In this document: positions 1 through 37,303 of the stretch, one piece after another | Layout: each line of letters opens with the position of its first letter | Position numbering within the stretch: position 1 is the first letter of the stretch | Source of the DNA: a virus | Virus record (IMG/VR): IMGVR_UViG_3300021963_000322 | Location: 1 to 37,549 of that record | Length of the DNA stretch: 37,549 bases | Strand: one strand, 5' to 3' | Translations under genes and position numbers: made by a program | The notes under the pieces: generated by a model | The model's input: the letters and a program-made list of their open reading frames with translations, nothing else | Databases searched by the model: none | What the model was told of the DNA's origin: nothing

Positions 1-1075
1 CCCATTCGCTTTCATGGCCCTCGTCCTGACCTTCGGCCAGCAGCCACTTGGGCTTGGGGGCCAGCGCGATGCTCTCGGTCATGCTGGTGCGCCAGAAGTT
101 GTACATCCGCTGCGGGTCTTTGGCGAACCGCACCAGGCCGTATTTCTTGCGCTTGCCCTCAACGATGACTTGGGCACCATAGCACGGGATGATCGGGATG
201 TACTTACCCGGCCACTCGCGTTCTTCCAGCACTTCCATGGCAGTCAGCTTGCACCACTTGACCTTGCGCCGGTAGGACGGGCGCTTGTCCATAATGGTGA
301 TCTGGCTTGCGTCCAGCAGTTCTGCGGACGGCAGTTCGTCTTCGTAGACCTTGGTGCCATCAGACAGCAGGATTAGGGTGGCTTTCTCGCGCTCAACGTG
401 CCAGTACTCGGCCACGCGAATGTCTTCCTTCGTGACCCATTCGGCGTCGCTGTCACCCGTCGCACGGGCGCTGAAGTTGGCCCCATCATCAGCCCCAGGG
501 TACTCGCGCCGAAACGCGGCCTTAGACATCACGCTGGTAATCAGGCATCGCTCGGCGTCTGACCCGTCGGGCGACACGCTGTTGGGGTCAAAGTACACCG
601 AAAACGGGTCGTCTACTGGCTCGATGTAGATTTCCTGGTCGAAACTTTCTTCCGACACATAGTTGGTGGTCACCCGCCAATAGCCCCAGCCCATCTTCAC
701 GGCGTATTCAAACGCGGTGTCGTAGGCCGTGTCGGCGCTGCTGTTGACTTCAATATGCCTGGTGATGCCTTCAATGACTTGGGCAATCTTCAGGTCGCCC
801 TCGTTGTTGACCGGGTGAACCTTGATCCTGGGCCGCTGCTGGCGCTGCTGGTTGGTGACCTGGCGCACATAGGCGTCGATCTTGTTGATGGTCAGGCACG
901 GGCGCGATTCCAGGTTGCGGCTGTTTTGAATCTCCACCGGCCACTGGTCACCCGCGGCAAACTTCAAGTCGCCAAGGGCTTCGGCCCTGTTCTGGCTGTC
1001 CGCTTCGCCCACTAGGCGCAGAAACTTGATTGCCTCGCCGATGCGGTCGTCAGTGTCAATGTCTTGCCGTGCCAT
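1..1075 (-). CDS. Portal protein, left allele, N-terminal part (truncated by contig end)
   Basis: This frame encodes the first ~358 residues of a P22-family portal, the dodecameric ring at the head vertex through which DNA is packaged and ejected. It starts at the ATG at 1075 behind an AAAGGA ribosome site and runs off the left edge of the window. It lines up with the N-terminal half of the complete portal at 33156-35354, with many silent and a few coding differences. The next gene upstream is TerL, ten bases away, as in P22-like packaging modules. The truncation is a contig boundary, not a biological break. The family call rests on similarity of the complete right copy to P22 gp1-type portals. 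Confidence 0.85.
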   Translation of the reverse strand, partial: MARQDIDTDDRIGEAIKFLRLVGEADSQNRAEALGDLKFAAGDQWPVEIQNSRNLESRPCLTINKIDAYVRQVTNQQRQQRPRIKVHPVNNEGDLKIAQVIEGITRHIEVNSSADTAYDTAFEYAVKMGWGYWRVTTNYVSEESFDQEIYIEPVDDPFSVYFDPNSVSPDGSDAERCLITSVMSKAAFRREYPGADDGANFSARATGDSDAEWVTKEDIRVAEYWHVEREKATLILLSDGTKVYEDELPSAELLDASQITIMDKRPSYRRKVKWCKLTAMEVLEEREWPGKYIPIIPCYGAQVIVEGKRKKYGLVRFAKDPQRMYNFWRTSMTESIALAPKPKWLLAEGQDEGHESEW

Positions 1076-1085
1076 ATCAATCCTT

Positions 1086-2369
1086 TCAACTCATCCAGTT
1101 GCCCGCCATGGCCACATTGGCACGTTTCTTGGGTTTGGACGGTTCCTTAATCATCAACGCAATATATCGGAATGCGTCGGCACCGTGCGAATACTGGTCG
1201 TGCAGCGGTTGTCTGCTGAATTGGCCGGTTTCAGGGTCAACGTCATACCGATAATGTCTCAGGCAGTTTAATCCATCTGCCGTGTTTTCCCTATCAAAAT
1301 AGCAGTTAGGGAAGATAGTGCGGGCCGCGTTGATCGAATCGACCACCGGCACCCTGTCCAGAATGCGGGTCTTAAACCCTGCCCCGCGCACGATGTCTTC
1401 GATGCTCCTACCAGCTGCGGCCAGCGTCGTGCTTTGGGCGTCGTGCGGTAGCCAGATGGTGTCGTAGACGTAGCCGTAGGTCTGAAGTTGCGCCAGGTAA
1501 CTGGTCATCGTGCGCTGGCTGTCCTCAAAGTACCGAATCAGGCGCGTTTCCATGCCCACAAACTGCACAAACCACCAGGCGGTAGCGTCGGCCCAGCCCA
1601 GGTCGCAGATGGCGTGTACGGGCTTTGTGGCGTCGTAGGGCACCTTGGTGACCCGTCCCTCGGCTTCGGCCCGCTGCAACTCGTTGGCAAAGATAGCCCC
1701 GTCCACAGACTGGCGGCACATACCTTCCCAAACCTGGTTATATGCTGGCAAGTCCCTGGCCTTCAGGGCTTCCATCTCCAGGCGCAGCGTTTCAGGGAAC
1801 CAGGGGTTGTCGTAGAAGTTGACTTTGATGCTGATGCAGTCCCGCGGTGGCTTGACCACAAACCGCTGGTAGGTTTCGTCTGTCTCCAACTCGGGATTGA
1901 ACGACACCCAGATTTCGCTGTCCTGCTTGCGGATGGTCGGAATCAGGATGTTCCACGACAGGCGGCTGACGGTCTGGGCTTCCTCCACCCAGCACACGTC
2001 CACGCCCTCAAATGATTTGATGTTGGTCGGGTTGTTCTTCAGGCCGATGAAGGCAAACTCGGTGCCATTGGCCCCGCGGATGCTGGCCTGGGTGATTTCG
2101 TAGAACCCCAGCAGCCCAAGGGCTTCGATCTGGTCGCATAGCAGCTTGTGGACAGAATCCTTGATGCTGGTCTGGTACTCGCGGGCGCACAGCACCCGCA
2201 TGGGCTTTTTGGCCCCCAGGATCAGCAGCGCCCTGGCAATGCCCCAGGACTTCGCGCCGCCCCGCCCGCCGTACAGTACCTTGTAGCGGCTTTTTTTGAA
2301 CAGACCTTGCAGTTTGACCGGGAATTCGGCCTTTGCAATGGCCTTGTCAATCGTTGCGTTCTGATCCAT
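1086..2369 (-). CDS. Terminase large subunit, left allele
   Basis: 427-residue DNA-packaging motor of the PBSX/P22 gp2 type: an N-terminal ATPase that pumps DNA through the portal and a C-terminal nuclease that cuts the concatemer. Visible motifs are Walker A GGRGGAKS (34-41), Walker B VDVCWVEEA (123-131), the SFNP coupling motif (156-159), and nuclease acidic residues in DLGWADA (D256), LPHDA (D310) and HGADAF (D398). It overlaps the end of TerS by 23 bases and is followed 10 bases later by portal. It differs from the right copy (35366-36649) at 24 of 427 residues by my count, all outside the motifs and mostly at the two termini. Function is secure; headful packaging is inferred from the P22-like context. 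Confidence 0.95.
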   Translation of the reverse strand: MDQNATIDKAIAKAEFPVKLQGLFKKSRYKVLYGGRGGAKSWGIARALLILGAKKPMRVLCAREYQTSIKDSVHKLLCDQIEALGLLGFYEITQASIRGANGTEFAFIGLKNNPTNIKSFEGVDVCWVEEAQTVSRLSWNILIPTIRKQDSEIWVSFNPELETDETYQRFVVKPPRDCISIKVNFYDNPWFPETLRLEMEALKARDLPAYNQVWEGMCRQSVDGAIFANELQRAEAEGRVTKVPYDATKPVHAICDLGWADATAWWFVQFVGMETRLIRYFEDSQRTMTSYLAQLQTYGYVYDTIWLPHDAQSTTLAAAGRSIEDIVRGAGFKTRILDRVPVVDSINAARTIFPNCYFDRENTADGLNCLRHYRYDVDPETGQFSRQPLHDQYSHGADAFRYIALMIKEPSKPKKRANVAMAGNWMS

Positions 2370-2892
2370 CGGCGTTCACAAACATGACCTGGATGCCAGC
2401 CAGCGGTGAACCGTCCTTGCCGGTGATTTCCTGCTCTACCTTGTCGCGCCAGCCCAGCACATTCTTGGCTGTAAAGATGGCGAACGTGCTGTTGTACGCG
2501 CCCGCCAGCGTCCCTTCGACCAGGTTGGCTTGCTGCAAATCCTTCGCCTTTTTATAGGCGTAAGAAAACGTTGGGTTGCGTAGTTCGCCTTCTGGCGTCT
2601 TCGCAGTAGCCCAATCGTGCAATGTCTCAGTAGTAACCCCTATGTTCGCGGCAAAGCGGGCAAGGGTCGGGAACAGGGCTGGCACGGTCTTTTCCACCGT
2701 GTTGCCTTCCTTGTCTACTGTGGTGACGGTCTTGATTGGCGGCTGGCCAAAGTACTCCAGCAGCATCATGACAAACTCATCCCTGTATTTGGTCGGCCTT
2801 CCACCCAAATTCTTTGGGTGTTCTGGCGCGTCGCGGGTGGGCTTGTCTTTGGGTTGACGCCCCCGCCGCTTGACGGGTGCATCTAAGGTCAT
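2347..2892 (-). CDS. Terminase small subunit, left allele
   Basis: 181-residue DNA-recognition subunit of the packaging terminase, resembling P22 gp3-like packaging proteins. Residues 76-96 look like a helix-turn-helix (ending [11 protein letters not shown]) and the conserved C-terminal part contains [10 protein letters not shown]. The basic N-terminus ([10 protein letters not shown]) resembles an AT-hook; the right copy carries the canonical RGRP form. The ATG overlaps the stop of the preceding small gene (ATGA), and the 3' end overlaps TerL by 23 bases. In P22 the pac site lies inside the small-subunit gene, so a packaging start may lie here, but I cannot identify it by eye. It is two residues longer than its right-hand counterpart. 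Confidence 0.88.
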
Positions 2893-3032
2893 TTTTTGCC
2901 CTTCGGTGCCTTGGCTTCGCGCTTTACTGCATAGGCGATGGCCACCGCTTGCTTGGGTGGCTTTCCTGCTTTGATTTCGGCCTTGATGTTCTTTTGGAAC
3001 GCTTGCTTACTGGGCGATTTGGTCAGGGGCAT
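2889..3032 (-). CDS. Small basic protein, DUF6496-like, left allele
   Basis: 47-residue lysine-rich protein starting [12 protein letters not shown] and containing [17 protein letters not shown], the pattern of a small phage/bacterial family I recognise as DUF6496-like; its function is unknown. It starts inside the 3' end of the upstream coiled-coil gene and its stop overlaps the TerS start (ATGA), so it is translationally coupled to the terminase genes. A nearly identical 46-residue copy lies at 37163-37303. Conservation between the two diverged alleles supports it being a real gene. The name is from memory of the family motif and has not been searched. Confidence 0.75.
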
Positions 3033-3186
3033 CTTGTTTCTCCTTGCTCATCGCTTTGGATTGTTCCTCTGCGATTACTCGGTTGTATTCCTGGATGGCA
3101 CCGCTGATCTGTAACAGAACACTTTCATGCTGTTTCGCCAGTTCTTGCAGTTCAGCCAGGCGCTTTTGCATTTGCTCAAGGGTCAT
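3007..3186 (-). CDS. Small coiled-coil protein, left allele
   Basis: 59 residues starting [19 protein letters not shown], with heptad-spaced leucines across residues 3-35 predicting a short coiled coil, then a charged tail. The ATG overlaps the stop of the upstream gene (ATGA) and the end overlaps the DUF6496-like gene by 26 bases. The right copy at 37278-37460 is 60 residues, with most changes in the last 15. I do not recognise a family. Its place directly ahead of the terminase genes suggests a packaging- or late-operon accessory role, which is only an inference. Confidence 0.72.
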
Positions 3187-3275
3187 TTCTTTGCAGTCTT
3201 GGCGCTTTGTTTGAAGGCTTTGGCCGTGGGTGCGCCTTTGTCCCCAGGGCTTCGCATACGCTCGGGTTTCTTGCC
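3149..3275. repeat. 127-base exact repeat, internal copy
   Basis: Identical to the last 127 bases of the window (37423-37549); the base just before differs (c here, t at 37422). It covers the 3' part of the 54-residue gene and the 5' part of the coiled-coil gene. A repeat of exactly 127 bases that stops at a contig end is what a de Bruijn assembler run with k=127 leaves where two graph paths merge. Confidence 0.93.
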
Positions 3276-3716: not shown

Positions 3717-3992
3717 TCAACAGTTCCAGTTTTTCAGGGATGCCTTGGCCCTCTCAGCTGGGCCTTTGGCGTTTTTAACCACCCCTTCCATTCTCGCGCA
3801 GAAAGACGCCTTGCGTCCAGCGTCTGCCTTGGTCTTCGGGTTTGGTGCTGGTGGCTTCAGGTTTGCGTTGTTCTTGGCGTTGTACGCCGCACGGCCTTTC
3901 GCCGTCATCCCCGCCCCTTGCTCTGTGGGGCGGTAGTTGCGATCTTTGCCGGTCGTGGTGCGAGCAATCGGCTTGTCGTGTCCCTTAGCCAT
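3717..3992 (-). CDS. DUF6321-like basic protein
   Basis: 91-residue very basic protein starting MAKGHDKPIARTTTGKDRNY. The middle and end (MTAKGRAAYNA, NLKPPAP and RKASFCARMEGV) match the pattern of the phage/bacterial family I recall as DUF6321, whose members end in SFCARMKGM-like motifs; function is unknown. I chose the start at 3992, inside the 3' end of the GroES-like gene (8-base overlap), because upstream in-frame codons are antisense to GroES-coding sequence. Lys/Arg richness suggests nucleic-acid contact, which is inference. Other alternatives cannot be excluded. Confidence 0.72.
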   Translation of the reverse strand: MAKGHDKPIARTTTGKDRNYRPTEQGAGMTAKGRAAYNAKNNANLKPPAPNPKTKADAGRKASFCARMEGVVKNAKGPAERAKASLKNWNC

Positions 3993-4254
3993 TTGCGTCC
4001 TCCACGATGGCAGCAATGTCTGCTTCCTGAATGATCTGGTAATCCTGGCCGTCAAATTCATGAATTGGCCAATCCAGATACGTGCCGTTTCCGTACTTAA
4101 CCAAATCGCCCACCTTGGCGTCGTGAACGTCAGGGCCGATGGCCACAATCGTTCCCTCGTTCATTTTCTCGCTGTTGATGGTGAAAATGACGTCCGACAG
4201 TTTGCGGACACGAGGCTGCACAACTACACGATCACGAAGCGGGCGAATTGGCAT
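3985..4254 (-). CDS. GroES-like co-chaperonin
   Basis: 89-residue chaperonin-10 family protein. The first strand MPIRPLRDRVVVQP is the family's signature, followed by the mobile-loop region (residues 16-34, with VIF where GroES has IVL), GTIVAIGP, KVGDLVKY, and the closing strand ADIAAIVE. Length is close to cellular GroES (~97) and shorter than T4 gp31. Cpn10 caps the GroEL folding chamber; phage versions such as T4 gp31 allow the host chaperonin to fold the phage coat protein. No GroEL gene is present, so it must work with host GroEL. Start chosen at 4254 because the domain begins there. The C-terminus overlaps the DUF6321-like gene. Confidence 0.88.
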   Translation of the reverse strand: MPIRPLRDRVVVQPRVRKLSDVIFTINSEKMNEGTIVAIGPDVHDAKVGDLVKYGNGTYLDWPIHEFDGQDYQIIQEADIAAIVEDANG

Positions 4255-4453
4255 TTTTTGGTTTCCTTCCAGGCTTTTTGCGCTCGACCAGTTGTTCTGG
4301 TTCAAGGATTGGGATGGTCAAGACAGTCGATAACTGATGCTCACCGCACCAATCCATCTCATGCTTGTTTTGATGCTCCGGGAAACGACGGCAAACACCC
4401 ATCACCTGGGCCTGGGTAAAAAAACGACAAGTCTTGCAACGAACGTCGCTCAT
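4232..4453 (-). CDS. Small cysteine-rich protein with basic tail
   Basis: 73 residues starting MSDVRCKTCRFF, with four cysteines (CKTC, then VCRRF and WCGEH) that could bind one zinc ion, and a basic end containing KKPGRKPK, an AT-hook-like motif. The pairing suggests a DNA- or RNA-contacting protein. It starts by ATGA overlap with the preceding gene and overlaps the GroES gene by 23 bases. I recognise the CxxC...RFP...CGE pattern from unnamed short phage proteins but no function is known to me. Confidence 0.7.
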   Translation of the reverse strand: MSDVRCKTCRFFTQAQVMGVCRRFPEHQNKHEMDWCGEHQLSTVLTIPILEPEQLVERKKPGRKPKNANSPAS

Positions 4454-4632
4454 CGAACCGGCTTTCCCGATTCCACTGCGGCATTCAAACCCGCGGCCAT
4501 GGCTTCAGCGATGCGACGCATTTTGGCTTCGTGCATACGCTTCATTCGATGTTCAGCGGGCGTTGCCACGCGTTCCTTCATAGATGGCGCGGCTGATTTG
4601 GCCGGTGCGGTAGGCATTTTCGAGTGCATCAT
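4450..4632 (-). CDS. Small basic hypothetical protein
   Basis: 60 residues, Ala-, Lys-, Met- and Arg-rich, predicted mostly helical (RMKRMHEAKMRRIAEAMAAGL). The 5' end overlaps the zeta-toxin-like gene by 80 bases in another frame, but the start has a clear AAAGGA site seven bases ahead and the stop overlaps the next ATG (ATGA), which supports it. Either of the two adjacent ATGs (4632 or 4629) could be used. No family recognised. Confidence 0.6.
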   Translation of the reverse strand: MMHSKMPTAPAKSAAPSMKERVATPAEHRMKRMHEAKMRRIAEAMAAGLNAAVESGKPVR

Positions 4633-5458
4633 TAAGTCCTTTCCGTACCTGAGTATGGTTCAACTGTGGTAGTTTGTCAAGACTGCTTACGACGGCTTTT
4701 TTCGGGCCGCGGCTGTTGTCCACGACCATCATAGAAAACCTGTGGTCGTCGCCGTATTTCTCCTGAAGACGTTCCATGACGTCACGCGCTCCCGCGTGGG
4801 TCTTGAAATGCTCATCCAGCGGCACTGTTCTGCCTGTGCCTAAGTCGGCTTCCATCCTGCTAGCCCGCTTCAATGCGCCGTTTTCCAGGGCTTCCACAGG
4901 GTCGCGGTAGGTGTAGACAATACCGACCTTGCGGCCAGCCGATAACGCTTGCTGAATCTTTTTGTCCGCGGAATCGAACGTGTTCATATTCGTGTCGTAC
5001 ACGATTTCTGCGTTCTTGATGTCCGGGTGCTCGTCTTGCACCATCTGAAGCCCAGTCGTTTTGCCTGCGCCGGTTCCGCCTGCGGTGAACAAAACTAAAT
5101 TGTCACGGCCTGCGGGAGTCGGGTTCGACAGTTTTTCTGCATACATCTGTTTGACGAATGCAGACGACGGCTCATGTACGTCTGCCGACCTGGTGCGTTC
5201 GGCTCGGTACTCCGGGGACATTTCGCGGGCGTCATCAGTGTTTAAAATTCGCCCTCCGTCGGTCGTCGGCAGCGCGGCATATTCCTGCGCCAGACCGCTG
5301 TAGTCGTTTTGAAGACGGTCGAAATATGCGGCCTCAATCGGGTTGCCCGATTGGGCCAGTTGGGGCGGCTGCGGAACCAACGACGCCAGGGTTCCTTGGG
5401 TGGTCGCGGCCTGGGGCTGCTGCCCTGCCGCTGCCAGGTCTGACAGCGGGATAGCCAT
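4553..5458 (-). CDS. Zeta-toxin-like P-loop kinase
   Basis: 301-residue protein with a zeta-toxin/AAA-type kinase core. Walker A is GGTGAGKT (127-134), preceded by the hydrophobic strand LVLFTA; YDTNM (154-158) sits where zeta toxins place their substrate-contact Asp, TYRDP (183-187) and R201 are candidate phosphate-binding residues, and VVDNS (245-249) closes the core. Classical zeta toxins phosphorylate UDP-GlcNAc and block wall synthesis. The N-terminal ~70 residues are Pro/Gln/Ala-rich, then ILNTDDAREMSPEYRAERTR precedes the core. No epsilon-type antitoxin lies next to it. It starts immediately after the stop of the 72-residue gene (TAAATG). Lying in the late operon, it may act on the cell late or be packaged; neither is shown. 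Kinase fold is firm, substrate is unknown. Confidence 0.8.
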   Translation of the reverse strand: MAIPLSDLAAAGQQPQAATTQGTLASLVPQPPQLAQSGNPIEAAYFDRLQNDYSGLAQEYAALPTTDGGRILNTDDAREMSPEYRAERTRSADVHEPSSAFVKQMYAEKLSNPTPAGRDNLVLFTAGGTGAGKTTGLQMVQDEHPDIKNAEIVYDTNMNTFDSADKKIQQALSAGRKVGIVYTYRDPVEALENGALKRASRMEADLGTGRTVPLDEHFKTHAGARDVMERLQEKYGDDHRFSMMVVDNSRGPKKAVVSSLDKLPQLNHTQVRKGLNDALENAYRTGQISRAIYEGTRGNAR

Positions 5459-5677
5459 TTATTTCTGGTAGGACGAACGACCGTGGGTGTAGCAAACGCC
5501 TTTCGAGCGGCCACCGTTGTATTGGTGATTGCTGCCCATAGCGTCGGCCTTGCCCATGGCAACACCGTTCACAACCTTGCCGTGGCGCTCGCCGCTGGAA
5601 TCGCTGGCGCTTGCGCCCGCAGGGGCTTTGCCGCCCGATCCGTAGCCTTTGGGAGTCATTTCGGCGTTGTCTTTCAT
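5459..5677 (-). CDS. Small Gly/Ser-rich hypothetical protein
   Basis: 72 residues, low-complexity and polar (Gly, Ser, Lys, Ala), beginning MKDNAEMTPKGYGSGGK. Predicted disordered, with no membrane segment and a single Cys. An AAAGGAAAGACC site precedes the ATG and the stop is fused to the start of the zeta-like gene (TAAATG), so the two are co-translated. Such an immediate upstream position is where a toxin's partner could lie, but it shows no resemblance to epsilon antitoxin. No family recognised. Confidence 0.62.
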   Translation of the reverse strand: MKDNAEMTPKGYGSGGKAPAGASASDSSGERHGKVVNGVAMGKADAMGSNHQYNGGRSKGVCYTHGRSSYQK

Positions 5678-5688: not shown

Positions 5689-6048
5689 TCAGTTTAGGAA
5701 TTTCAAGCGGTACAGGGTCGAATCAATCAACTGACTGATTTCGTCGATGATATTCTGAATCTCAGAGTCCTGGGGTAAGTCGCCGCGGGCTTCATCCACA
5801 AACTTTTGGATTGAAGACAGGTACTTGATAGGGTCTGTCGCGCTGTGGAATTCTTCCGGGTACTTCTTGATTTTTTCGTACCGACCTTGGTAGGCTTCGG
5901 CAAAATCATCGGTCAGGTCTACGATGTGTTCGTAGTAGTGCCCCAGCGCCTTGTGCTTGGAATATGAATCCGTCGCCAGGTGCATGAAATGCGTCACCGT
6001 GCTGCTGTGCAGCATCGTGGCGATAAATTCGGCGGCGTCTTCATTCAT
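5689..6048 (-). CDS. DUF5856-like helical protein
   Basis: 119 residues starting MNEDAAEFIATMLHSSTVTHF. The motifs MHLATDSYSKHKALGHYYEHIVDLTDDFAEAYQG (residues ~22-55, quoted in parts here) and SEIQNIIDEI...LIDSTLYRLK fit the phage family DUF5856, all-helical and resembling ferritin/Dps-type bundles; function is not established. The start at 6048 is where the family begins; an ORF extending upstream would read through the terminator. There is no good ribosome site, and the -10 box lies only six bases before the ATG, so the mRNA may be leaderless. It is the first gene of the late operon. Confidence 0.75.
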   Translation of the reverse strand: MNEDAAEFIATMLHSSTVTHFMHLATDSYSKHKALGHYYEHIVDLTDDFAEAYQGRYEKIKKYPEEFHSATDPIKYLSSIQKFVDEARGDLPQDSEIQNIIDEISQLIDSTLYRLKFLN

Positions 6049-6054: not shown

Positions 6055-6083
6055 ATCATAGTGCAAAAAAACGGGGGCGCAAA
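6055..6083 (-). promoter_or_regulatory. Candidate promoter for the late operon
   Basis: On the minus strand TATGAT (6060-6055) is a near-perfect -10. A weak -35, TTGCGC 16 bases away or TTTGCG at 17, falls inside the terminator hairpin. The -10 ends six bases before the ATG at 6048, predicting a start at or next to the initiation codon. Confidence 0.45.
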
Positions 6084-6090
6084 GCCCCCG
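6065..6090 (-). terminator. Rho-independent terminator of the Cro operon
   Basis: On the minus strand CGGGGGC pairs with GCCCCCG around a five-base loop (TTTGC), followed at once by seven T residues. This is a textbook intrinsic terminator. It lies 14 bases past the stop of the HNH gene at 6104 and ends the early leftward operon before the late one begins. Confidence 0.92.
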
Positions 6091-14087: not shown

Positions 14088-14543
14088 TCAAACGATTTCA
14101 AAGTGCGGGCCGTCGATAAATGGCCGTCTGCCCTGCTTTCGGCACCAATCGACATACGACATCATTGCCGCTTCCATCGTGCCTTGCCATTTGCGGATAT
14201 CGTTGACAGTCCACGCGCCGCCCCATCGTAGCGGTACGTTTTCAGCGATTGCCGCCTCTTTCATGGCGTCTGCAATGTCGTCGTACAGGTTTAGTTCCCA
14301 CGACCCCCTGGTGCCGATATAGGCCATCAGGTCAACCGCTTTACCCTGGACGTGTGTCCCACCCTCGCGGACTTGGCTTGCGCCCTTGTCGAACAGTTCA
14401 CGCTGGCGCTGGGGCGTTCTCACGCCTTCGATCACCGCAAAGTCCACCTTGGTCAACTCAATGGCGCGATGGACAACGATCACCAGGCGGTAGTCCACGC
14501 CCTCAAGGTTGGCCAGCGACCGCTTGGACAGCTTGAAGGTCAT
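14088..14543 (-). CDS. Endolysin, M15-type L-Ala-D-Glu/D-Ala peptidase
   Basis: 151-residue zinc peptidase of the M15 family (VanY/T5 endolysin type), which cuts peptide bridges of peptidoglycan to release virions. Visible zinc ligands are GGTHVQGKAVDL (61-72, H64 and D71) and DGPHFEI (144-150, H147). The N-terminal domain contains GVDYRLVIVVHRAIE and EGVRTPQRQ. No signal peptide, so export depends on the holin. It starts by ATGA overlap with the holin gene and is the last gene of the late operon. Confidence 0.9.
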   Translation of the reverse strand: MTFKLSKRSLANLEGVDYRLVIVVHRAIELTKVDFAVIEGVRTPQRQRELFDKGASQVREGGTHVQGKAVDLMAYIGTRGSWELNLYDDIADAMKEAAIAENVPLRWGGAWTVNDIRKWQGTMEAAMMSYVDWCRKQGRRPFIDGPHFEIV

Positions 14544-14929
14544 CGCTTAATCGCTTGGGCGATGCTGGGGGCGATCTTTTCCACAGACCTACCCACAACA
14601 TATCCACCAAGCCCGAATTCGACAATCGACCAGAGTTTGATGTATTCGGCTTCGGACAGGTTTGGCGCAGCCCAGCCAAACCACCTGGCCACGATCAGGG
14701 CCACAAAGGTAATCATGGTCAGCGGTCGCCAGTTTGCGGCCAGCCAATGAGTGGATGCCGCTTCGGTCTGGATGATCTTGGACGCGGCCTGTTCGATTTC
14801 AGACTGCGCGGCCAGTAGCTGGCGCATCACTTCGGCTTCGGCCTTGGCTTTTTCTGCGGGGTCGGGGAACAGGTTGCCGACCACCTTCCCCAGAATGGGG
14901 GCCAGTACAGGGATCAGGGCTTGCAGCAT
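14540..14929 (-). CDS. Holin (GTA_holin_3TM-like)
   Basis: 129-residue membrane protein resembling the three-segment holin family of gene-transfer agents and phages. Hydrophobic stretches are at 4-20 (IPVLAPILGKVVGNLF), 69-87 (PLTMITFVALIVARWFGW) and 100-115 (LWSIVEFGLGGYVVGR), separated by an Ala/Glu-rich helix. Holins form the timed membrane holes that let the endolysin reach the wall. It lies directly upstream of the endolysin gene. No Rz/Rz1 spanin pair was found downstream. Confidence 0.85.
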   Translation of the reverse strand: MLQALIPVLAPILGKVVGNLFPDPAEKAKAEAEVMRQLLAAQSEIEQAASKIIQTEAASTHWLAANWRPLTMITFVALIVARWFGWAAPNLSEAEYIKLWSIVEFGLGGYVVGRSVEKIAPSIAQAIKR

Positions 14930-15172: not shown

Positions 15173-17839
15173 TTATCGTCGTCCTTCCGTTTCGACATTT
15201 CGTTGTTCAATAACTGCTTGGCCAGCACCAGCGCCCACAACACCAGGTCTAACCATGTCTGTAATTGGAATTGTTTTGCGCGGCGGGGGCGGTACTACCG
15301 TAGGTTCTGTGGCCTGGCGCAACAAGTCTGATGCCTTGCGCTGTTGCACACGTTGCTGCACTGCTACTGCTGCGCCAGTCAACAATGGGAAATTCCATCC
15401 AGCAATGGTGGCCAACAAGTTGTTAATTTCGCCAGACTGAACAACACCTTTAACGAAATTTGCGGCTGCTGGTGCGGTGTTCGATCTGTTGACCGCTGCT
15501 GCTACTGGCGCAACCAGTGCATTTTCCGCAACACGGTTTAGTTTGGTCAAGTTGCTAAATTGTTCGGGCGTCAGGAATCGCTGTAAACGATCAGCCATTG
15601 GCCCTTTCACAAAGTCTTTTAGTCCGGCTTGACTAAAGGCTGCGTTTTCATCGCTGACGTTGTTGGTCACGCGATTTTTAATGTGCTTGATGATGTCATT
15701 CTGCACTTGCGCCAAGGCTTCAGGATTGTTGGCCTGAAGGTACTTTTGCATCTTGTCAATTTCGTTGACGTTGCCTTGCAAGATGTGTTTAGTTACCCAT
15801 TTGTCGGGTTCCTTGCCGCGTATCGCATCTTTTAGTGCAGGAATGCTGTCAATGGTTTGGAATCGTTCCTGTGCAATTTTTCGGGCTTCACGCGCAGCAG
15901 CACCCGCTTGGCCAGGCAGATTGGCACCGGCTTCATTGATGGCATTGTTCAACGAACGGCGCAATTCATCTAAAGCATTGAGAGTGCCTTTGGATTGTTT
16001 AGATGGATCGTAATTGTTGTTGATAACCTTAATCAGTCGTTCAGCATCATCAATCGTGGTGACTTTCAGTTGCTTGCCGCTTAACAATCCAAGTGAATTC
16101 AGATTGTTGCGAACGCCACCAGGAATTTGATCTTTACCAAAGTCCCGCAACACTCGCGCATAGTCTTGCGCCAGCCCCGTCAACGGTACGTCAATGTTGC
16201 GGCCAGTAGATTGCCGATAGGCTGCATATGCATCACGAACGCGTTGTGCGGCCACCTCGTCGGCTTGGCCCAATGCGTTGCTTAATGTAAAGCCGCTGGT
16301 GGTAATTGATTGTCCCTTAGCAGCACCAAAGTCATCCAGCTTGCTTAACAACGCTTTGTTTTGCGCTTGCAGCACTTGTTGAATCGGCTCGCCTACGCCT
16401 TGAATGCCGCGCAAATTTTGTTCAACAGCAAACTGCATGGGGTCACGGGTCAACTGTCCACGCAACATCGGAATGCCCAACTCATTTGCTTCGCTAAAGT
16501 TGCGGGCAAATTGCTGAAATGTTTTAATGTCACCAGTCTGAAGCGCCGTCTTGGCCTGGTCTTGCAGACCTTTGAAATACTGCGGCGCAATCGTGTTGGG
16601 GTCTAACCCAGCTTCACGCAACACGGTGTTAGCTGCGTCATCCAGTTGATTGGCTGGGACAGCACCGCCGAATCTTTTACGAACAGCGTCAATGCCGCGC
16701 CCAGCGGTTGTGCTGAACATTTGAATAGCCGCGCCACCGCCAGCGCCAAACGTTGCGCCAGTCGCCGCCTGTTTGAGTTTTTCGGTTGTAAATGATGCTT
16801 GCTGATCCTCCACAGGCGTCATCAGCACGTTGGCTACTGCGCCTTGGCCAGCAGCCTTAGCCGCAGCGCCTTTGATGGTTGTAGGTGCTGCGCCAAACGT
16901 AGGAATCAATTTATTCAAAGGGTTCACTACGTAGCCGGTAATTTCACCCGCGATAGCAGCCTTCGGGCTTTCTTTGCGGCCAGCTTGTTCCATGGCTTGA
17001 TTGGCCAACTCAATGTTTTGTTGGGCATTGGCCATGATGTTTTGGCGAGTGGATTCATCCAAACCAGGAAAATACTTGCCGACCAACTGTTGCACCGCAC
17101 CAATAGATTTGGAAACGGTGCCGCCAGCAACGTTGGCAAATGTGCCAATTTCTGCCGAACCGGGAATAGACTCAATCGCGCTTTGAAGTTTTTTACCAAA
17201 CTCCGTTTGAGATTCAAACATCCGCGGAACAGGCGGCTTAGATGGCGCTGCGGTTGTTGGTGTAGGCGTCGCACTTGGCGCTGCACTTGGCGCTGCGGCA
17301 GTCGAAGCAGGTTCAGGGGCACCTTTTAATGCTCTCTCAAGACCGCCAAGATCAAACTCCCCAGTCGATCCAGCCGCAGCAGCAGGTGCCGCAGCGGGCG
17401 CAGGTGCCCGTTGTCCATAAATGGCCCCAGGCCCGCTTTCAAACTGCGTGATGCCCGCGGTCAGTTGCAGACGTACCAGCGGGTTGCTAAGGTCAATCGG
17501 CTGGTCGGGCTTTAGGCCAGTCACCCTGGCCACATGGTTGATGTAGTTGCGCGTCCCTTCGGGCGTGTTGCCTTTGCCGGTCGGCGGTGACCAGGTGTTA
17601 ATGACGCCTTCCAGCGTATTGATGCCCCGCTTGCCGTAGGCTTGCAGGTTCTGGTCAAGTGCCCGCAACCCTTCGTCCATGGTGCCGAATTGGGCCAGTT
17701 GGCCCTTGGGCATCAGTGCGCCAGGGTTGTTGGTTCGCAGCGGCGCGGGGGTCGTCGCTGTTTGTGAAGGTGGTTCAGATTTGCGCGGCTTTACACCCAA
17801 CGCGCCCTCTAAGCCAGTCAGGTCAAATTCTTGTGCCAT
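15173..17839 (-). CDS. gp16-like ejection protein with N-terminal hydrolase domain
   Basis: 888 residues, longer than P22 gp16 (609). Residues 34-144 form a peptidoglycan-degrading-type domain found in phage structural proteins (TNNPGAL, GLRALDQNL, WSPPTGKGNTPEGTRNYI, GITQFE). A duplicated motif EFDLxGLExAL flanks it (residues 4-14 and 161-171), joined by Pro/Ala-rich linkers. The remaining ~700 residues are helical, with a membrane-like glycine/alanine stretch around 315-390, as expected for a protein ejected into the cell with the DNA. It follows gp20-like by two bases. It would open the cell wall for DNA entry. Confidence 0.82.
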   Translation of the reverse strand: MAQEFDLTGLEGALGVKPRKSEPPSQTATTPAPLRTNNPGALMPKGQLAQFGTMDEGLRALDQNLQAYGKRGINTLEGVINTWSPPTGKGNTPEGTRNYINHVARVTGLKPDQPIDLSNPLVRLQLTAGITQFESGPGAIYGQRAPAPAAAPAAAAGSTGEFDLGGLERALKGAPEPASTAAAPSAAPSATPTPTTAAPSKPPVPRMFESQTEFGKKLQSAIESIPGSAEIGTFANVAGGTVSKSIGAVQQLVGKYFPGLDESTRQNIMANAQQNIELANQAMEQAGRKESPKAAIAGEITGYVVNPLNKLIPTFGAAPTTIKGAAAKAAGQGAVANVLMTPVEDQQASFTTEKLKQAATGATFGAGGGAAIQMFSTTAGRGIDAVRKRFGGAVPANQLDDAANTVLREAGLDPNTIAPQYFKGLQDQAKTALQTGDIKTFQQFARNFSEANELGIPMLRGQLTRDPMQFAVEQNLRGIQGVGEPIQQVLQAQNKALLSKLDDFGAAKGQSITTSGFTLSNALGQADEVAAQRVRDAYAAYRQSTGRNIDVPLTGLAQDYARVLRDFGKDQIPGGVRNNLNSLGLLSGKQLKVTTIDDAERLIKVINNNYDPSKQSKGTLNALDELRRSLNNAINEAGANLPGQAGAAAREARKIAQERFQTIDSIPALKDAIRGKEPDKWVTKHILQGNVNEIDKMQKYLQANNPEALAQVQNDIIKHIKNRVTNNVSDENAAFSQAGLKDFVKGPMADRLQRFLTPEQFSNLTKLNRVAENALVAPVAAAVNRSNTAPAAANFVKGVVQSGEINNLLATIAGWNFPLLTGAAVAVQQRVQQRKASDLLRQATEPTVVPPPPRKTIPITDMVRPGVVGAGAGQAVIEQRNVETEGRR

Positions 17840-17841: not shown

Positions 17842-19572
17842 TTAGTCCCCTCTGACCAACCGGCCATACGCCTGAAGTTTTTGCAACAACATTTGCTGTT
17901 CAGTCAAATTCACGTTGTTGGCATTCAACCATTTCGTTAGTCCATCCCTACCGCCTGTGTCGTATGCGTTTTTCATTCTCAACGCCAAAGGATCATAGGC
18001 ATCATTCATGGCTCGATCAAAATCAGGTTTGGCGTAGTAACTGTTGGGGCTTTTGGCGATGGCACGTTCTAGTCCCGTTGAATAGTTGGCAACGTGCTGC
18101 ATCAAAGGTTCAAGTTGATCCATCACCTTAGAGATGGCTGTTGGATTCTTACCGGCGCTAGCCAATGAGTTTTGCACCGCAGCCAAATCAGCAGCAAATT
18201 TCCCCCCAAACGCTGAATTTTTTTGCAACGCAAGATCAGCAATGTTCTTTTCAATGATGTCACGCGCCGCTGCCGCCAGTTCTTCTGGTTTGCTGCCCGC
18301 CACGTTACCCAACACCGACTGCAATCCTGCAATGGCTTCAGAGTACCGACCCGTTTGTGCAAGTGGCAAATACTGTCTGATGGTGCGAATGTTGTCTACC
18401 GCATTCCGCGCAGGTTGCACTTGTTCACGCGCCGCCATGGCTTGGGTGCGGTAAGTGTTTCCTGATTCCGCGGTTTCAAACGCTGGAATACGCACAGGAG
18501 TTTTGTATTGCGGCGGCAATCCAGCGGGTTCGGATGCAGGCGGCAATGGTGGCGCACCAAATGGCGGCAGATCACGCGCCTGGATGTTGGGCTGTGTAAT
18601 AACGCCTGGCGGCGGTGGCGGTGGCGCAACGACAGGCGCGGCTTGTCCAGTCGGCGTAAGTGGCGCAGTCGGCAATCTTCCAGCAGCAGCAGCCTCCAAA
18701 TCACCAGCCGAAAAGGTGCCAAGCAAATCACCATTAGGCCCAAATGCGTCCATCAATTCGCGGTTATCAGGCCCAATACGCCCTGTCGGCCTAATTCGAC
18801 TTCCAGGTGGCAATTGTGTGATGGCAAGTGGCTTTGTACCAACTTCAATAGTTGGCGATTCTCCAGCCACTGATGGAGTCGTGGTCGTCGGGAAAATAGC
18901 CGCGGTGGTGCTAATTGTGCCAGGCTGTTTGCCAAACGCTGTGCGCTGTGCTGCGACACTCATGACTTGATTGCCAGCATTGATAGCCAACTGCGGCAGC
19001 AAATCGGGATTAGACACCATGCTTAACTGCGTCCTGAATGATTGCACCAGGTTTCGCATGGCCGGGTTGTTGGCGTACTGTTTTTCGATGTTGTCAAAAA
19101 ACCCTTGATAAACCGTCGGGTCTTTGACGCCTTGATAACCATATGCGCTAAGGCCAGACCCCACTACTTCGCGCTGCGATGTAGTCATGTCTTGAATGGC
19201 TCGTTCGGCTTGGGTCTGTGCGGTGCTAAGGTCGCTGTACTGGCGAATCAGTTCACCGCCAGTCAATGGGGCAATTTTAGGAATTTCCGCATTTAACTTA
19301 TTGATGTCAATCCGCCCATCGCTTTGGAAGTTTTCAGGGCGGCTCATAAACTGCATGACCCTTGCTCGTTCAGCTTCTTTTTGCTGCTCCAACGTCAACG
19401 CAATTTGCCCCGTACCAGTCACCTGTTGCTGTTGTTGCAGCAGCAAGGGGTTCATTTGCTCGGACTGCTGATAGGCTTGTGCGCCGCGGGCAAGGTTAAC
19501 CATCTCGCCCAAACTCATGTTGGGCACGGGTTTGATCTGGGCTGCGATAGGGGTTACGCTTAGGTCTGCCAT
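17842..19572 (-). CDS. gp20-like DNA ejection protein
   Basis: 576 residues in the position of P22 gp20 (471). The N-terminal third is helical with Gln-rich segments (QQSEQMNPLLLQQQQQV), the middle is a Pro-rich disordered region (~300-350) and the C-terminal part is helical. Such proteins are ejected ahead of the DNA to build the trans-envelope channel. Sequence similarity to gp20 is weak by eye; the call rests on order between gp7-like and gp16-like genes and on composition. Confidence 0.72.
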   Translation of the reverse strand: MADLSVTPIAAQIKPVPNMSLGEMVNLARGAQAYQQSEQMNPLLLQQQQQVTGTGQIALTLEQQKEAERARVMQFMSRPENFQSDGRIDINKLNAEIPKIAPLTGGELIRQYSDLSTAQTQAERAIQDMTTSQREVVGSGLSAYGYQGVKDPTVYQGFFDNIEKQYANNPAMRNLVQSFRTQLSMVSNPDLLPQLAINAGNQVMSVAAQRTAFGKQPGTISTTAAIFPTTTTPSVAGESPTIEVGTKPLAITQLPPGSRIRPTGRIGPDNRELMDAFGPNGDLLGTFSAGDLEAAAAGRLPTAPLTPTGQAAPVVAPPPPPPGVITQPNIQARDLPPFGAPPLPPASEPAGLPPQYKTPVRIPAFETAESGNTYRTQAMAAREQVQPARNAVDNIRTIRQYLPLAQTGRYSEAIAGLQSVLGNVAGSKPEELAAAARDIIEKNIADLALQKNSAFGGKFAADLAAVQNSLASAGKNPTAISKVMDQLEPLMQHVANYSTGLERAIAKSPNSYYAKPDFDRAMNDAYDPLALRMKNAYDTGGRDGLTKWLNANNVNLTEQQMLLQKLQAYGRLVRGD

Positions 19573-19574: not shown

Positions 19575-20282
19575 TTAACCCTTCAGTCCGATTGAGGCGT
19601 TAAATCCTGGATATGGGTCATTCAAACCGCCACCGCCAGTTTGTCTATTCATCAGGTTATACAGGAACGCTGTGTTACCCAAGCCTTGCAACCCACCGGC
19701 CATCGCATTGGCAGCGCCAATCTGACCAGCGCCCAACGCGGTCGCCCCGCCAATCGCGGCCTGGCCAATGTTGCCAGCCGCATTCATCCCGGCTTGGTTG
19801 GCTTGAGTTTGGCCTGTCTGACCGATGCCAGCGATACCGGCCAAGGTGTTGTAGATGTTCTGGCGCTGCGAAATGACCTGGGGCATCGCGGTGCCAAGGG
19901 TGTAGTCAATCGCAAACTTCTGGGCTGCGCGGTCAACGTTCGACCCACCGCCGCCGACGTTCATGGCCGCACGGGCGGCACCTGTACCCTGCTCAATGCC
20001 AAACTGATAGCCAGGCAATCCCAAGATTTCCTCACGGGACACGGGGGCCGTCAGACCCGGCAGCAGTTCGCCAATCCGCGTCAGCGCACCGTAGCCAGCT
20101 TCCCGGTACGGGGCTTGCTGCTGGTTGATGGTTTCAAACATCTGCCGCTGAACATCAGCAGCGTATTGAGTAGCCCCAGCTTGTTGCGCCGCAGCAGACT
20201 TTGCCGCTCTCGACTGCATACCAGCGCCGATCAGGCCAGCGCCAGCACCTAGCAGTAGTGCGGTTCCTGTTCCGATTGCCAT
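19575..20282 (-). CDS. gp7-like DNA ejection protein
   Basis: 235 residues, close to P22 gp7 (229). Starts MAIGTGTALLLGAGAGLIGAG, a glycine/alanine-rich hydrophobic segment typical of the group, then helical Ala/Gln-rich blocks (APYREAGYGALTRIGELLPG, NIYNTLAGIAGIGQTGQTQA) and NAMAGGLQGLGNTAFLYNL near the end. It should be a virion protein ejected during infection. Adjacent to the GNAT gene upstream and gp20-like downstream. Confidence 0.8.
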   Translation of the reverse strand: MAIGTGTALLLGAGAGLIGAGMQSRAAKSAAAQQAGATQYAADVQRQMFETINQQQAPYREAGYGALTRIGELLPGLTAPVSREEILGLPGYQFGIEQGTGAARAAMNVGGGGSNVDRAAQKFAIDYTLGTAMPQVISQRQNIYNTLAGIAGIGQTGQTQANQAGMNAAGNIGQAAIGGATALGAGQIGAANAMAGGLQGLGNTAFLYNLMNRQTGGGGLNDPYPGFNASIGLKG

Positions 20283-33155: not shown

Positions 33156-35354
33156 TCACTGCGGCATACCCATGCCAGGTTGCATTTCCGGCTGCATAGG
33201 CGGCTGCATTGGGGGCTGCATGGGTTGAGCCAGCAATTCCTGTCCTGCCTGAATAAATGGGTTCTGCGTCTGGTTGACTTCCATTTCCGCAAACGCTGAC
33301 GCTTGCTTTTGTTCGGCGTTGCGGCGTTCGATTTCCGCGGCCAACGCTTCGGCGGGTAGACCTCCCAAGACCAGTCGCACCATGGCGTCTAGTTCCATCT
33401 TGTTTTGGTCTGTCACCGCTTTCATGTTGACTTGATTGACGCGGGCTTCGTTAATGGTGTCGGTGTTGTATGCGCGGCTGATAACGTCCATCAGTTTGCG
33501 CCGGTTTTGGCCGTCCTCCTTGATCGATGCGACTTGGCCGCGGTTGTTAATCTCCAGTTGCATGGCAATCATTTTCTGCTCCATGTCGGCAACAGCCTTC
33601 TGGGCTTGCAGCAACTGCATCTGAATCTGCGGCGGTACATCCGTGTCCGGGCTGATCTGTGCCAGCGGATTCATCGCGGCCAGACGGTCGGCAATGATGT
33701 CTGCGCCGGGAAAATCCATGTTGCGGAACAACAGGTCGCCCGCGGCTTGGAAGACCGTAGGCTCGGCCATCAGCGGCATCATGGTATCTACAGCCTGCTG
33801 GCGCTTGCTGTTGTAGCCGGGGCCGACGTCCATCACAACGTCATACAGGCCGACAGTCACATCGTTCATGACTTCGCCTGCCGCCTGAACCTCGTTGATG
33901 GTCACTAGGTCAGGCTTTCCGTCAACGCCAATAATCCGCAACACGCGCTGCGTGTCGTAAATCTTCGGGATCAAGTCCAGCAGAATCTTGCCGGTGTGCT
34001 TGATGCTCCGAGTCATGTTGTCGTAGAAATGGAAGTTCGACAGGTCAACCTGCTGCTGCTGGCCCTGTAGCGCCTTCCCGCTGATGTTGCCTGGCAGAGC
34101 CTGAGCGGGGTCAAAAATGCCCAGCACAGTCTTCAAGTCGTCAGCAATCGCGCTAGACGCCACCATAATCCCTTCGGGCGGGGGTTCTGGCTGGATGCGC
34201 GACGGGGGCGGGGCCGGTTGGCCTTCAATATCCTTTTGTTTGTACCGCAGAACAGGCGTTGATTTAATGTTAGCGAGTGCCCACTCACTTTCGTGGCCTT
34301 CGTCCTGGCCCTCAGCCAACAGCCATTTGGGCTTCGGTGCCAAAGCAATGCTTTCGGTCAGGGCCGTGCGCCAGAAATTGAACATCCGCTGCGGGTCTTT
34401 GGCGAACCGCACTAGGCCGTACTTCTTACGCTTGCCCTCAACAACGACCTGGGCACCGTAGCAGGGAACAATCGGAATGTATTTGCCTGGCCATTCCTGT
34501 TCTTCCAGAACTTCCATGGCGGTCAACTTGCACCATTTGACCTTGCGCCGATACGACGGGCGCGAATCCATAATGGTGATCTGGCTGGCTTCCAGCAGTT
34601 CTGGTGACGGCAGTTCGTCTTCGTAGACCTTAGTCCCGTCTGACAGCAGAACCAGAGTCGCTTTCTCGCGCTCTACGTGCCAATACTCTGCGACACGAAT
34701 ATCTTCCTTCGTCACCCATTCGGCATCGCTGTCGCCAGTTGCGCGGGCGCTGAAGTTTGCGCCGTCATCAGCCCCAGGATATTGGCGGCGGAATGCCGCT
34801 TTGGACATCACGCTGGTAATCAGTACGCGTTCGGCGTCTGACCCGTCGGGCGCAACGCTGTTTGGGTCGAAATACACCGAAAACGGGTCGTCAACAGGCT
34901 CGATATAGATTTCTTGGTCGAAACTGTCTTCGCTGACGTAGTTAGTGGTCACTCTCCAGTAACCCCAGCCCATTTTTACAGCGTACTCAAACGCCGTGTC
35001 GTAGGCTGTGTCTGCGCTGCTGTTGACTTCAATGTGCCGGGTGATCCCTTCAATGACTTCAGCAATCTTCAGGTCACCTTCATTGTTGACCGGGTGAACC
35101 TTAATGCGGGGGCGCTGCTGGCGCTGCTGATTGGTGACCTGGCGCACATAGGCGTCGATTTTGTTGATGGTCAGGCATGGCCGCGCCTCCAGGTTGCGGC
35201 TGTTCTGAATCTCAACTGGCCACTGATCGCCGGAAGCAAACTTCAGGTCGCCCAGTGCTTCGGCCCTGTTCTGGCTGTCCGCTTCGCCCACCAGGCGCAA
35301 AAACTTAATTGCGTCCCCGATGCGGCTATCAATGTCGGTGTCTTGCCATGCCAT
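33156..35354 (-). CDS. Portal protein (complete, right allele)
   Basis: 732 residues from MAWQDTDIDSRIGDAIKFLRL, similar in length to P22 gp1 (725) and longer than most portals. Family features include KFASGDQWPVEIQNSR, RPCLTINKIDAYVRQVTNQQRQQRPRI, WGYWRVTTNYVS and a long helical C-terminal barrel region (600-700). It ends in a run of MQPPMQP repeats. I start at 35354 because the left allele starts at the matching place (1075) with the same AAAGGA site; an upstream in-frame ATG at 35378 would overlap TerL. Confidence 0.93.
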   Translation of the reverse strand: MAWQDTDIDSRIGDAIKFLRLVGEADSQNRAEALGDLKFASGDQWPVEIQNSRNLEARPCLTINKIDAYVRQVTNQQRQQRPRIKVHPVNNEGDLKIAEVIEGITRHIEVNSSADTAYDTAFEYAVKMGWGYWRVTTNYVSEDSFDQEIYIEPVDDPFSVYFDPNSVAPDGSDAERVLITSVMSKAAFRRQYPGADDGANFSARATGDSDAEWVTKEDIRVAEYWHVEREKATLVLLSDGTKVYEDELPSPELLEASQITIMDSRPSYRRKVKWCKLTAMEVLEEQEWPGKYIPIVPCYGAQVVVEGKRKKYGLVRFAKDPQRMFNFWRTALTESIALAPKPKWLLAEGQDEGHESEWALANIKSTPVLRYKQKDIEGQPAPPPSRIQPEPPPEGIMVASSAIADDLKTVLGIFDPAQALPGNISGKALQGQQQQVDLSNFHFYDNMTRSIKHTGKILLDLIPKIYDTQRVLRIIGVDGKPDLVTINEVQAAGEVMNDVTVGLYDVVMDVGPGYNSKRQQAVDTMMPLMAEPTVFQAAGDLLFRNMDFPGADIIADRLAAMNPLAQISPDTDVPPQIQMQLLQAQKAVADMEQKMIAMQLEINNRGQVASIKEDGQNRRKLMDVISRAYNTDTINEARVNQVNMKAVTDQNKMELDAMVRLVLGGLPAEALAAEIERRNAEQKQASAFAEMEVNQTQNPFIQAGQELLAQPMQPPMQPPMQPEMQPGMGMPQ

Positions 35355-35365
35355 GTTAGTTCCTT

Positions 35366-36649
35366 TCAACTCATCCAATTACCCGCGGTCGCCATCACTG
35401 GCCGCTTTTTGGGTTTGGACGGCTCTTTAATCATCAGCGCGATATACCGGAAGGCGTCAGCACCGTGCGAATACTGGTCATGCAGCGGTTGCCTGCTGAA
35501 TTGGCCGGTTTCCGGATCGACGTCATACCGATAGTGACGCAGGCAGTTTAACCCGTCGGCTGTGTTTTCTCTATCAAAGTAGCAGTTCGGAAATACCGTG
35601 CGGGCAGCGTTGATCGAGTCAACCACCGGAACCCTGTCCAGAATGCGCGTCTTGAACCCTGCCTGACGCACAATGTCCTCAATGCTGCGGCCAGCCGCGG
35701 CCAGTGTCGTGCTTTGGGCGTCATGCGGCAACCAAATGGTGTCGTAGACGTACCCGTAGGTCTGAAGTTGCGCCAGGTAACTGGACATAGTGCGCTGGCT
35801 GTCCTCAAAGTAACGGATCAGGCGCGTTTCCATGCCCACAAACTGCACAAACCACCAGGCGGTGGCGTCGGCCCAGCCCAGGTCGCAAACCGCATGGACG
35901 GGCTTGGTGGCGTCGTAGGGCACCTTTGTGATGCGCCCCTCAGACTCGGCCTTTTGCAACTCATTGGCAAAGATAGCGCCGTCCACAGACTGGCGGCACA
36001 TCCCTTCCCAAACCTGGTTATACGCTGCCAGGTCGCGGGCTTTCAGGGCTTCCATTTCCAGCCGCAGGGTTTCGGGGAACCATGGGTTGTCGTAGAAGTT
36101 GACTTTGATACTGACGCAGTCCCGCGGAGGCTTGACCACGAACCGTTGATAGGTCTCGTCGGTTTCCAGTTCAGGGTTAAACGACACCCATATTTCGCTG
36201 CCTTCCTTACGGATTGTCGGGATCAAAATGTTCCACGACAGGCGGCTAACAGTCTGCGCTTCCTCAACCCAACAGACGTCGACGCCTTCAAATGACTTGA
36301 TGTTGGTCGGGTTGTTCTTCAGGCCGATGAATGCAAACTCGGTGCCGTTAGCGCCGCGGATGCTGGCCTGAGTGATCTCGTAGAACCCTAGCAGGCCCAG
36401 GGCTTCGATCTGGTCGCATAGCAATTTGTGAACCGAATCCTTGATGCTGGTCTGGTACTCGCGGGCACACAGAATCCGCATGGGCTTTTTGGCCCCCAGA
36501 ATCAACAGCGCCCTAGCAATGCCCCAAGACTTCGCACCGCCTCGCCCGCCGTACAGCACTTTATAGCGGCTCTTGCGAAACAGCCCTTCCAGTTTGATTG
36601 GAAACTGGGCCTTCGCAATAGCCTGGTCAATCGGTGCTTTCTGTTCCAT
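35366..36649 (-). CDS. Terminase large subunit, right allele
   Basis: 427 residues, same motifs as the left copy: GGRGGAKS, VDVCWVEEA, SFNP, DLGWADA, LPHDA and HGADAF. Eight of the 24 differences fall in the first 30 residues and four in the last 14, while the ATPase and nuclease cores are almost unchanged. Overlaps TerS by 23 bases and leads into the complete portal. Confidence 0.95.
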   Translation of the reverse strand: MEQKAPIDQAIAKAQFPIKLEGLFRKSRYKVLYGGRGGAKSWGIARALLILGAKKPMRILCAREYQTSIKDSVHKLLCDQIEALGLLGFYEITQASIRGANGTEFAFIGLKNNPTNIKSFEGVDVCWVEEAQTVSRLSWNILIPTIRKEGSEIWVSFNPELETDETYQRFVVKPPRDCVSIKVNFYDNPWFPETLRLEMEALKARDLAAYNQVWEGMCRQSVDGAIFANELQKAESEGRITKVPYDATKPVHAVCDLGWADATAWWFVQFVGMETRLIRYFEDSQRTMSSYLAQLQTYGYVYDTIWLPHDAQSTTLAAAGRSIEDIVRQAGFKTRILDRVPVVDSINAARTVFPNCYFDRENTADGLNCLRHYRYDVDPETGQFSRQPLHDQYSHGADAFRYIALMIKEPSKPKKRPVMATAGNWMS

Positions 36650-37166: not shown

Positions 37167-37303
37167 TTCTTGCCCTTTGGCTTTGCTTCACGCTTTACAG
37201 CATAGGCAATGGCCACCGCTTGTTTGGGTGGCTTGCCTGCTTTGATTTCGGCCTTGATGTTTTTCTGAAAGGCTTGCTTACTGGGGGATTTGGTCAGCGG
37301 CAT
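37163..37303 (-). CDS. Small basic protein, DUF6496-like, right allele
   Basis: 46 residues, identical to the left copy except for one residue lost near the C-terminus (EAKPKGKK against EAKAPKGKK). Stop overlaps the TerS start. Function unknown. Confidence 0.75.

What the first reader, a model, noticed from the sequence alone, without database searches (positions are those of the whole stretch)
4553..5677. Zeta-toxin-like kinase without an antitoxin in the phage late operon
The 301-residue protein has a complete P-loop (GGTGAGKT) and zeta-like downstream residues, plus a ~120-residue extra N-terminus. No epsilon homologue is adjacent; the 72-residue upstream gene, fused by TAAATG, is low-complexity. 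A zeta-type kinase that disables UDP-GlcNAc late in infection would weaken the wall and help lysis; alternatively the disordered N-terminus may tether it to the virion. Neither idea is established for such phages as far as I know.
Basis: partly seen in the sequence, partly recalled or inferred. Interest (0 to 1): 0.6.

Follow-up and report, generated by a model that had tools for sequence, protein, structure and literature searches.

The report
Phage zeta kinase, probably injected
A P22-like phage carries an intact sugar-nucleotide kinase of the gonococcal zeta-1 toxin type without an antitoxin; in many relatives the same domain is built into proteins the virus packs in its particle, so it is probably a weapon against the host's wall precursors that is delivered at infection rather than half of a toxin-antitoxin pair.

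Summary
Window 4553-5458 (-) encodes a 301-aa P-loop kinase, Pfam Zeta_toxin 54.6 bits, under purifying selection, at the head of the packaging and virion gene block of a P22-like phage. Residues 28-300 superpose on gonococcal ng_zeta1 (Z 26.7, against about 11 for ordinary zeta toxins). Asp75, before the P-loop, aligns with ng_zeta1's catalytic Asp56; only residues 1-29 are disordered. The protein therefore belongs to the "rewired" zeta class that phosphorylates UDP-sugars at C4'. D75, K133, R198 and R210 are invariant in 130 of 130 distinct relatives.

The 72-residue gene is not a dedicated antitoxin. Two related phages keep it with the kinase missing, and many kinases lack it.

The domain is fused into larger phage proteins in 28 of 131 distinct kinases. 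At least 21 of those fusions lie in the cassette of internal virion proteins, some with peptidoglycan-cutting or polyvalent-protein domains. This favours delivery with the virion over a lysis aid, but virion association of the stand-alone form is inferred. Iyer et al. 2017 already predicted zeta kinases in phage polyvalent proteins. The finding is a new variant of a known kind.

The parts
4553..5458 (-). KIN: stand-alone kinase of the ng_zeta1 (rewired zeta) class, 301 aa. D75 proposed catalytic base, K133 Walker A lysine, R198 and R210 phosphate patch; residues 1-29 disordered
   Evidence: Pfam Zeta_toxin; PDB profile match to ng_zeta1 E 4e-17; AF2 pLDDT 83.6; VIA Z 26.7 to 6eph; active site invariant in 130 of 130
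5459..5677 (-). p72: small Gly/Ser-rich conserved protein. KIN start directly abuts its stop (TAA ATG) and KIN has no clear Shine-Dalgarno of its own, so translation is probably coupled
   Evidence: present without KIN in MW202520.1 and MW202674.1
4450..4632 (-). p60: 60-aa ORF overlapping the KIN 3' end by 80 nt; not detected in the 58%-identity relatives, so not an obligate partner
5689..6048 (-). DUF5856 protein (phrog_858), first gene after the terminator
   Evidence: PF19174 E 6e-24, phrog_858
6072..6090 (-). intrinsic-terminator-like hairpin CGGGGGCTTTGCGCCCCCG + T7, marking the start of the late block
   Evidence: conserved in 50 of 65 relatives, 0 of 65 control stretches
4232..4453 (-). 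p73, cysteine-containing small protein (weak HIPIP-like match)
3985..4254 (-). GroES-like co-chaperonin
   Evidence: PF00166 E 1e-8, phrog_3188
2347..2892 (-). terminase small subunit
1086..2369 (-). terminase large subunit
   Evidence: PF04466 E 3e-39
19575..20282 (-). P22 gp7-like DNA-ejection protein; with 17842-19572 and 15173-17839 it forms the ejection cassette, which in this phage lacks a fused kinase
   Evidence: PF25688, phrog_598
14088..14929 (-). lysis cassette (3TM holin + M15 peptidase), far from KIN

Best explanation
KIN is a catalytically intact kinase of the ng_zeta1 class that acts on host sugar-nucleotides, most likely UDP-MurNAc or UDP-GlcNAc, putting a phosphate on a sugar hydroxyl and so starving peptidoglycan synthesis. 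It is a delivered-effector module: in many relatives it is part of an ejected virion protein or polyvalent protein. The stand-alone form in this phage is probably a freed version of that module, made with the virion proteins and either packaged and injected or acting late in the cell. It is not half of a toxin-antitoxin pair. Shown by sequence and model: class, active site, fusion contexts, absence of a dedicated antitoxin. Inferred: substrate, toxicity, packaging of the stand-alone form.
For: Class and active site: profile E 4e-17 to ng_zeta1 with D75 aligned to catalytic D56 and K133 to K115; Z 26.7, rmsd 2.6 over 254 residues, against Z of about 11 for S. pyogenes zeta, PezT and AvrRxo1; D75, K133, D155, R185, R198, R210 and H221 invariant in 130 of 130. 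ng_zeta1 biochemistry: PMC5923241. Delivery: 28 of 131 distinct kinases sit in ORFs of 520-3123 aa; 21 of these lie beside gp7-, gp20- or phrog_684-like virion genes. Fusion partners include SLT transglycosylase, glucosaminidase, InPase, ddrB-ParB, ART-PolyVal, LPD22 and LPD38. On a midpoint-rooted tree the stand-alone clade nests among fused forms. No dedicated antitoxin.
Against: No proteomics: the stand-alone form may never enter the virion. The ng_zeta1 residue Asn75, which contacts UNAM, aligns with Ser91, and Lys59 with Arg78, so substrate preference may differ. The R210/R181 register is uncertain. Structural relatives include a NAD kinase (AvrRxo1). Chromosomal relatives with a signal peptide or lipobox (L099, L100) do not fit a purely cytoplasmic role. 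The root of the tree is not established.
Confidence: 0.5

Rival explanations
1. Late lysis aid: KIN is made in the cytoplasm late in infection and blocks wall precursor synthesis so that the M15 endolysin works faster.
For: It lies in the late block just after a conserved terminator, stand-alone with no recognised export or packaging signal. ng_zeta1 expression lyses E. coli (PMC5923241).
Against: It is not in the lysis cassette (14088-14929). The module is repeatedly fused to internal virion proteins, not to lysis proteins.
Confidence: 0.2
2. Counter-defence or host takeover: KIN phosphorylates a nucleotide-like signal or cofactor (for example NAD or an immune second messenger) rather than a wall precursor.
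For: The structurally related AvrRxo1 phosphorylates NAD (title of PMC5491322). Fused partners are nucleotide- or protein-modifying polyvalent domains: InPase, ART, ddrB-ParB. The accessory presence/absence pattern fits an arms-race gene.
Against: The fold is far closer to ng_zeta1 than to AvrRxo1 (Z 26.7 against 11.3). No PADLOC match.
Confidence: 0.17
3. Toxin-antitoxin or addiction module with p72 as an unfolded antitoxin, as ng_epsilon1 is an extended peptide.
For: p72 lies immediately upstream in 64 of 85 distinct stand-alone cases, with a TAAATG junction in the window. ng_epsilon1 has no globular fold (PMC5923241).
Against: p72 homologues are kept where KIN is precisely missing: MW202520.1 has DUF5856-p72-p73-GroES with 61 bp between p72 and p73; MW202674.1 likewise lacks KIN between p72 and p73. 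18 distinct stand-alone kinases lack p72 and 3 have it elsewhere. No Epsilon_antitox match.
Confidence: 0.05
4. A structural or assembly NTPase, or a nucleic-acid end kinase, that only resembles zeta.
For: Polynucleotide kinases appear further down the structure list (Z about 9); it sits beside packaging genes.
Against: The ng_zeta1 match covers almost the whole chain, including the rewired N-terminal block and the Asp base; PNK matches cover 136-138 residues only.
Confidence: 0.05

Closest known systems
ng_zeta1 toxin of Neisseria gonorrhoeae (PDB 6EPG/6EPH/6EPI)
   Same: Fold over residues 28-300 including the rewired N-terminal block; catalytic Asp before the P-loop; Walker A Lys; conserved arginines
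   Different: No C-terminal OB domain, no epsilon partner, phage-borne, a disordered tail at residues 1-29; Asn75 is replaced by Ser and Lys59 by Arg
Zeta-toxin-like kinase domains of polyvalent and MuF proteins (Iyer et al. 2017, PMC5512222)
   Same: Phage context; fusions with InPase, ddrB-ParB, ART and LPD domains in the relatives; proposed role in injection
   Different: Stand-alone gene upstream of the terminase genes in P22-like phages; fusions here lie in the P22-type ejection cassette; assignment to the ng_zeta1 class is not in that paper's passages read here
Canonical zeta/PezT of epsilon-zeta modules (1GVN, 3Q8X, 2P5T)
   Same: P-loop phosphotransferase fold, Pfam Zeta_toxin
   Different: Z only about 10-11; order of sequence blocks differs; no epsilon homologue
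AvrRxo1 (4Z8Q/4Z8V)
   Same: Zeta-like kinase fold (Z 11.3)
   Different: A bacterial effector acting on NAD in plants; much more distant in structure

Membership tests
ng_zeta1-type (rewired) zeta kinase | Same order of structural blocks, with catalytic Asp N-terminal to the P-loop | tested here: met
   D75 aligns with D56 in two sequence alignments; strand 71-73 precedes it in the model; Z 26.7 over 28-300; D75 130/130
ng_zeta1-type (rewired) zeta kinase | Walker A Lys and phosphate-contacting arginines | tested here: met
   K133, R198, R210 invariant 130/130; R198 aligns with R175, R210 register against R181 uncertain
ng_zeta1-type (rewired) zeta kinase | UNAM-contacting Lys59 and Asn75 (a specificity feature of ng_zeta1 and its close homologues, not of the fold) | tested here: inconclusive
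   Aligned residues are Arg78 (charge kept) and, in one of two alignments, Ser91; the loop is gapped, so the Asn75 equivalent is unsure
ng_zeta1-type (rewired) zeta kinase | C4'-OH phosphorylation of UDP-sugars | not testable with these tools
   needs enzyme assay
epsilon/zeta toxin-antitoxin system | Cognate epsilon antitoxin encoded next to the toxin | tested here: not met
   no PF08998 in the record; p72 occurs without kinase and kinase without p72
Phage polyvalent or ejected effector | Domain occurs fused with polyvalent or virion domains | tested here: met
   true of relatives: 28 of 131 distinct kinases
Phage polyvalent or ejected effector | The protein itself is packaged in the virion | not testable with these tools
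   the window protein is single-domain; packaging needs virion proteomics

The most novel reading that the evidence does not exclude
A widespread family of ng_zeta1-class sugar-nucleotide kinases is injected by P22-like podophages, fused to or packaged with the ejection proteins, to shut down peptidoglycan precursor synthesis at the moment of DNA entry; this phage carries a freed, separately packaged version.
Probability: 0.35. Interest if true: 0.7.

Novelty: new variant of a known kind. Interest (0 to 1): 0.45.

Why it matters
Zeta kinases are known as toxins held in check by antitoxins. Here the same chemistry appears in a large phage family with no antitoxin, repeatedly welded to proteins the phage injects. 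If confirmed, wall-precursor kinases would be virion-delivered weapons, and Iyer's 2017 prediction becomes directly testable with a single-gene enzyme of known structural template.

Tried and rejected
p72 or p60 as antitoxin: rejected on gene-content evidence. PHROGs, NCBIfam and PADLOC gave no informative match for KIN. Sigma-70 promoter hits near KIN are at chance level (6 found, 4.5 expected), so no promoter is claimed. The named phage collection has only one relative, annotated 'thymidylate kinase'; that label is not supported, since the domain matches Zeta_toxin. No tRNAs. Literature searches found no report of a zeta kinase in ejection proteins, but the library lacks subscription journals and preprints. 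Locus tallies include contigs fetched twice; distinct counts are.

Full report
What is there. The window is a viral contig of 37,549 bases from a P22-like podophage: P22-type portal, scaffold and coat families, head closure Hc3, and a gp7-like ejection protein. On the minus strand, after a terminator-like hairpin at 6090-6072, the order is DUF5856, p72, KIN (4553-5458), p60, p73, GroES, DUF6321, TerS, TerL, portal and the virion genes. The hairpin is found in 50 of 65 relatives in the same place and in none of 65 control stretches, so KIN is the third gene of what looks like the late transcription block. The timing itself is inferred.

The kinase is real and intact. Pfam Zeta_toxin matches at 54.6 bits. 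Substitutions between relatives are strongly purified (dN/dS 0.08-0.17). Residues including D75, K133, R198 and R210 are identical in all 130 distinct homologues.

Its class. The only strong relative of known structure is gonococcal ng_zeta1 (phmmer E 2.7e-6; profile E 4e-17). The AlphaFold2 model (mean pLDDT 83.6) superposes on it with Z 26.7 and rmsd 2.6 over 254 residues from 28 to 300, against Z of about 11 for S. pyogenes zeta, PezT and AvrRxo1. ng_zeta1 differs from other zeta toxins by swapped sequence blocks. Its catalytic Asp56 precedes the P-loop and it phosphorylates UDP-sugars at C4' (PMC5923241). The query's D75 aligns with Asp56 and K133 with K115. Thus most of the N-terminus that looked 'extra' is the rewired catalytic block, and only residues 1-29 are a low-confidence tail. 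Of two UNAM contacts of ng_zeta1, Lys59 aligns with Arg78 and Asn75 probably with Ser91, so the exact sugar is open.

No antitoxin. p72 lies next to KIN in 64 of 85 distinct stand-alone cases but is absent in 18 and elsewhere in 3. In phage MW202520.1 (TerL 76% identical) the order is DUF5856-p72-p73-GroES with no kinase; MW202674.1 (TerL 72%) also keeps p72 before p73 without a kinase. The p72 match in MW202674.1 is 40.8 bits against at most 23.1 for 200 shuffles. In L160 and L170 the kinase sits next to TerS, away from p72. p72 is therefore a core gene of this phage group and the kinase an accessory insertion. The TAAATG junction and the lack of a Shine-Dalgarno before KIN suggest translational coupling instead (inference).

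Delivery. Across three viral scans, one genome scan and one phage record, 131 distinct kinase segments were compared. Of these, 28 lie in ORFs of 520-3123 residues, and at least 21 of those are flanked by gp7-, gp20- or phrog_684-like internal virion genes. Partner domains include SLT transglycosylase (weak, L117), glucosaminidase + InPase + LPD38 (L128), ddrB-ParB (L111, L163), ART-PolyVal (weak, L111), LPD22 (L116; weak in L179) and InPase (L047). The tree needs at least three changes between fused and stand-alone states on well-supported branches, and with midpoint rooting the stand-alone clade nests within fused forms. Some stand-alone relatives carry hydrophobic, Gly-rich N-terminal segments (L044, L122, L150). 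The window's own ejection proteins show no Zeta_toxin match.

How it most likely works. The kinase phosphorylates a UDP-sugar of the peptidoglycan pathway and starves wall synthesis. Because the module keeps turning up inside ejected proteins, delivery with the DNA is the favoured mode, with late cytoplasmic action as the main alternative. Substrate and packaging of the stand-alone form are not shown.

Relation to the literature. Iyer et al. 2017 (PMC5512222) already noted zeta-toxin-like kinases in polyvalent and MuF proteins and suggested wall weakening during injection. What is added here is the ng_zeta1 class assignment with the relocated Asp, the stand-alone form at the head of the late block of P22-like phages, its place in the P22-type ejection cassette of relatives, and the gene-content evidence against an antitoxin.

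Noticed in passing
1-3275 and 34280-37549: The contig ends are 85% identical direct copies (portal start, TerL, TerS twice). Twelve relatives of 33.6-35.4 kb each carry one TerL, so this is probably a chimeric assembly of a roughly 34-kb circular or circularly permuted genome running into a second strain, not a real duplication.
   Followed up: partly
L099:5932-6786 and L100:100-1089: Chromosomal relatives in pseudomonadotal MAGs begin with an apparent Sec signal (L099) or lipobox (L100): exported zeta-type kinases, which is odd for an ATP-dependent enzyme.
   Followed up: no
3985-4254: GroES-like co-chaperonin gene next to the packaging genes, conserved in the relatives and in MW202520.1 and MW202674.1.
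   Followed up: partly
5689-6048: DUF5856 lies directly upstream of KIN even in phages with a very different terminase (L118, L149, L150), yet also occurs without the kinase (MW202520.1).
   Followed up: partly
MW202577.1 (L053:6117-8753): Record annotates an 878-aa protein as 'thymidylate kinase'; its C-terminal domain is a Zeta_toxin-type kinase.
   Followed up: yes
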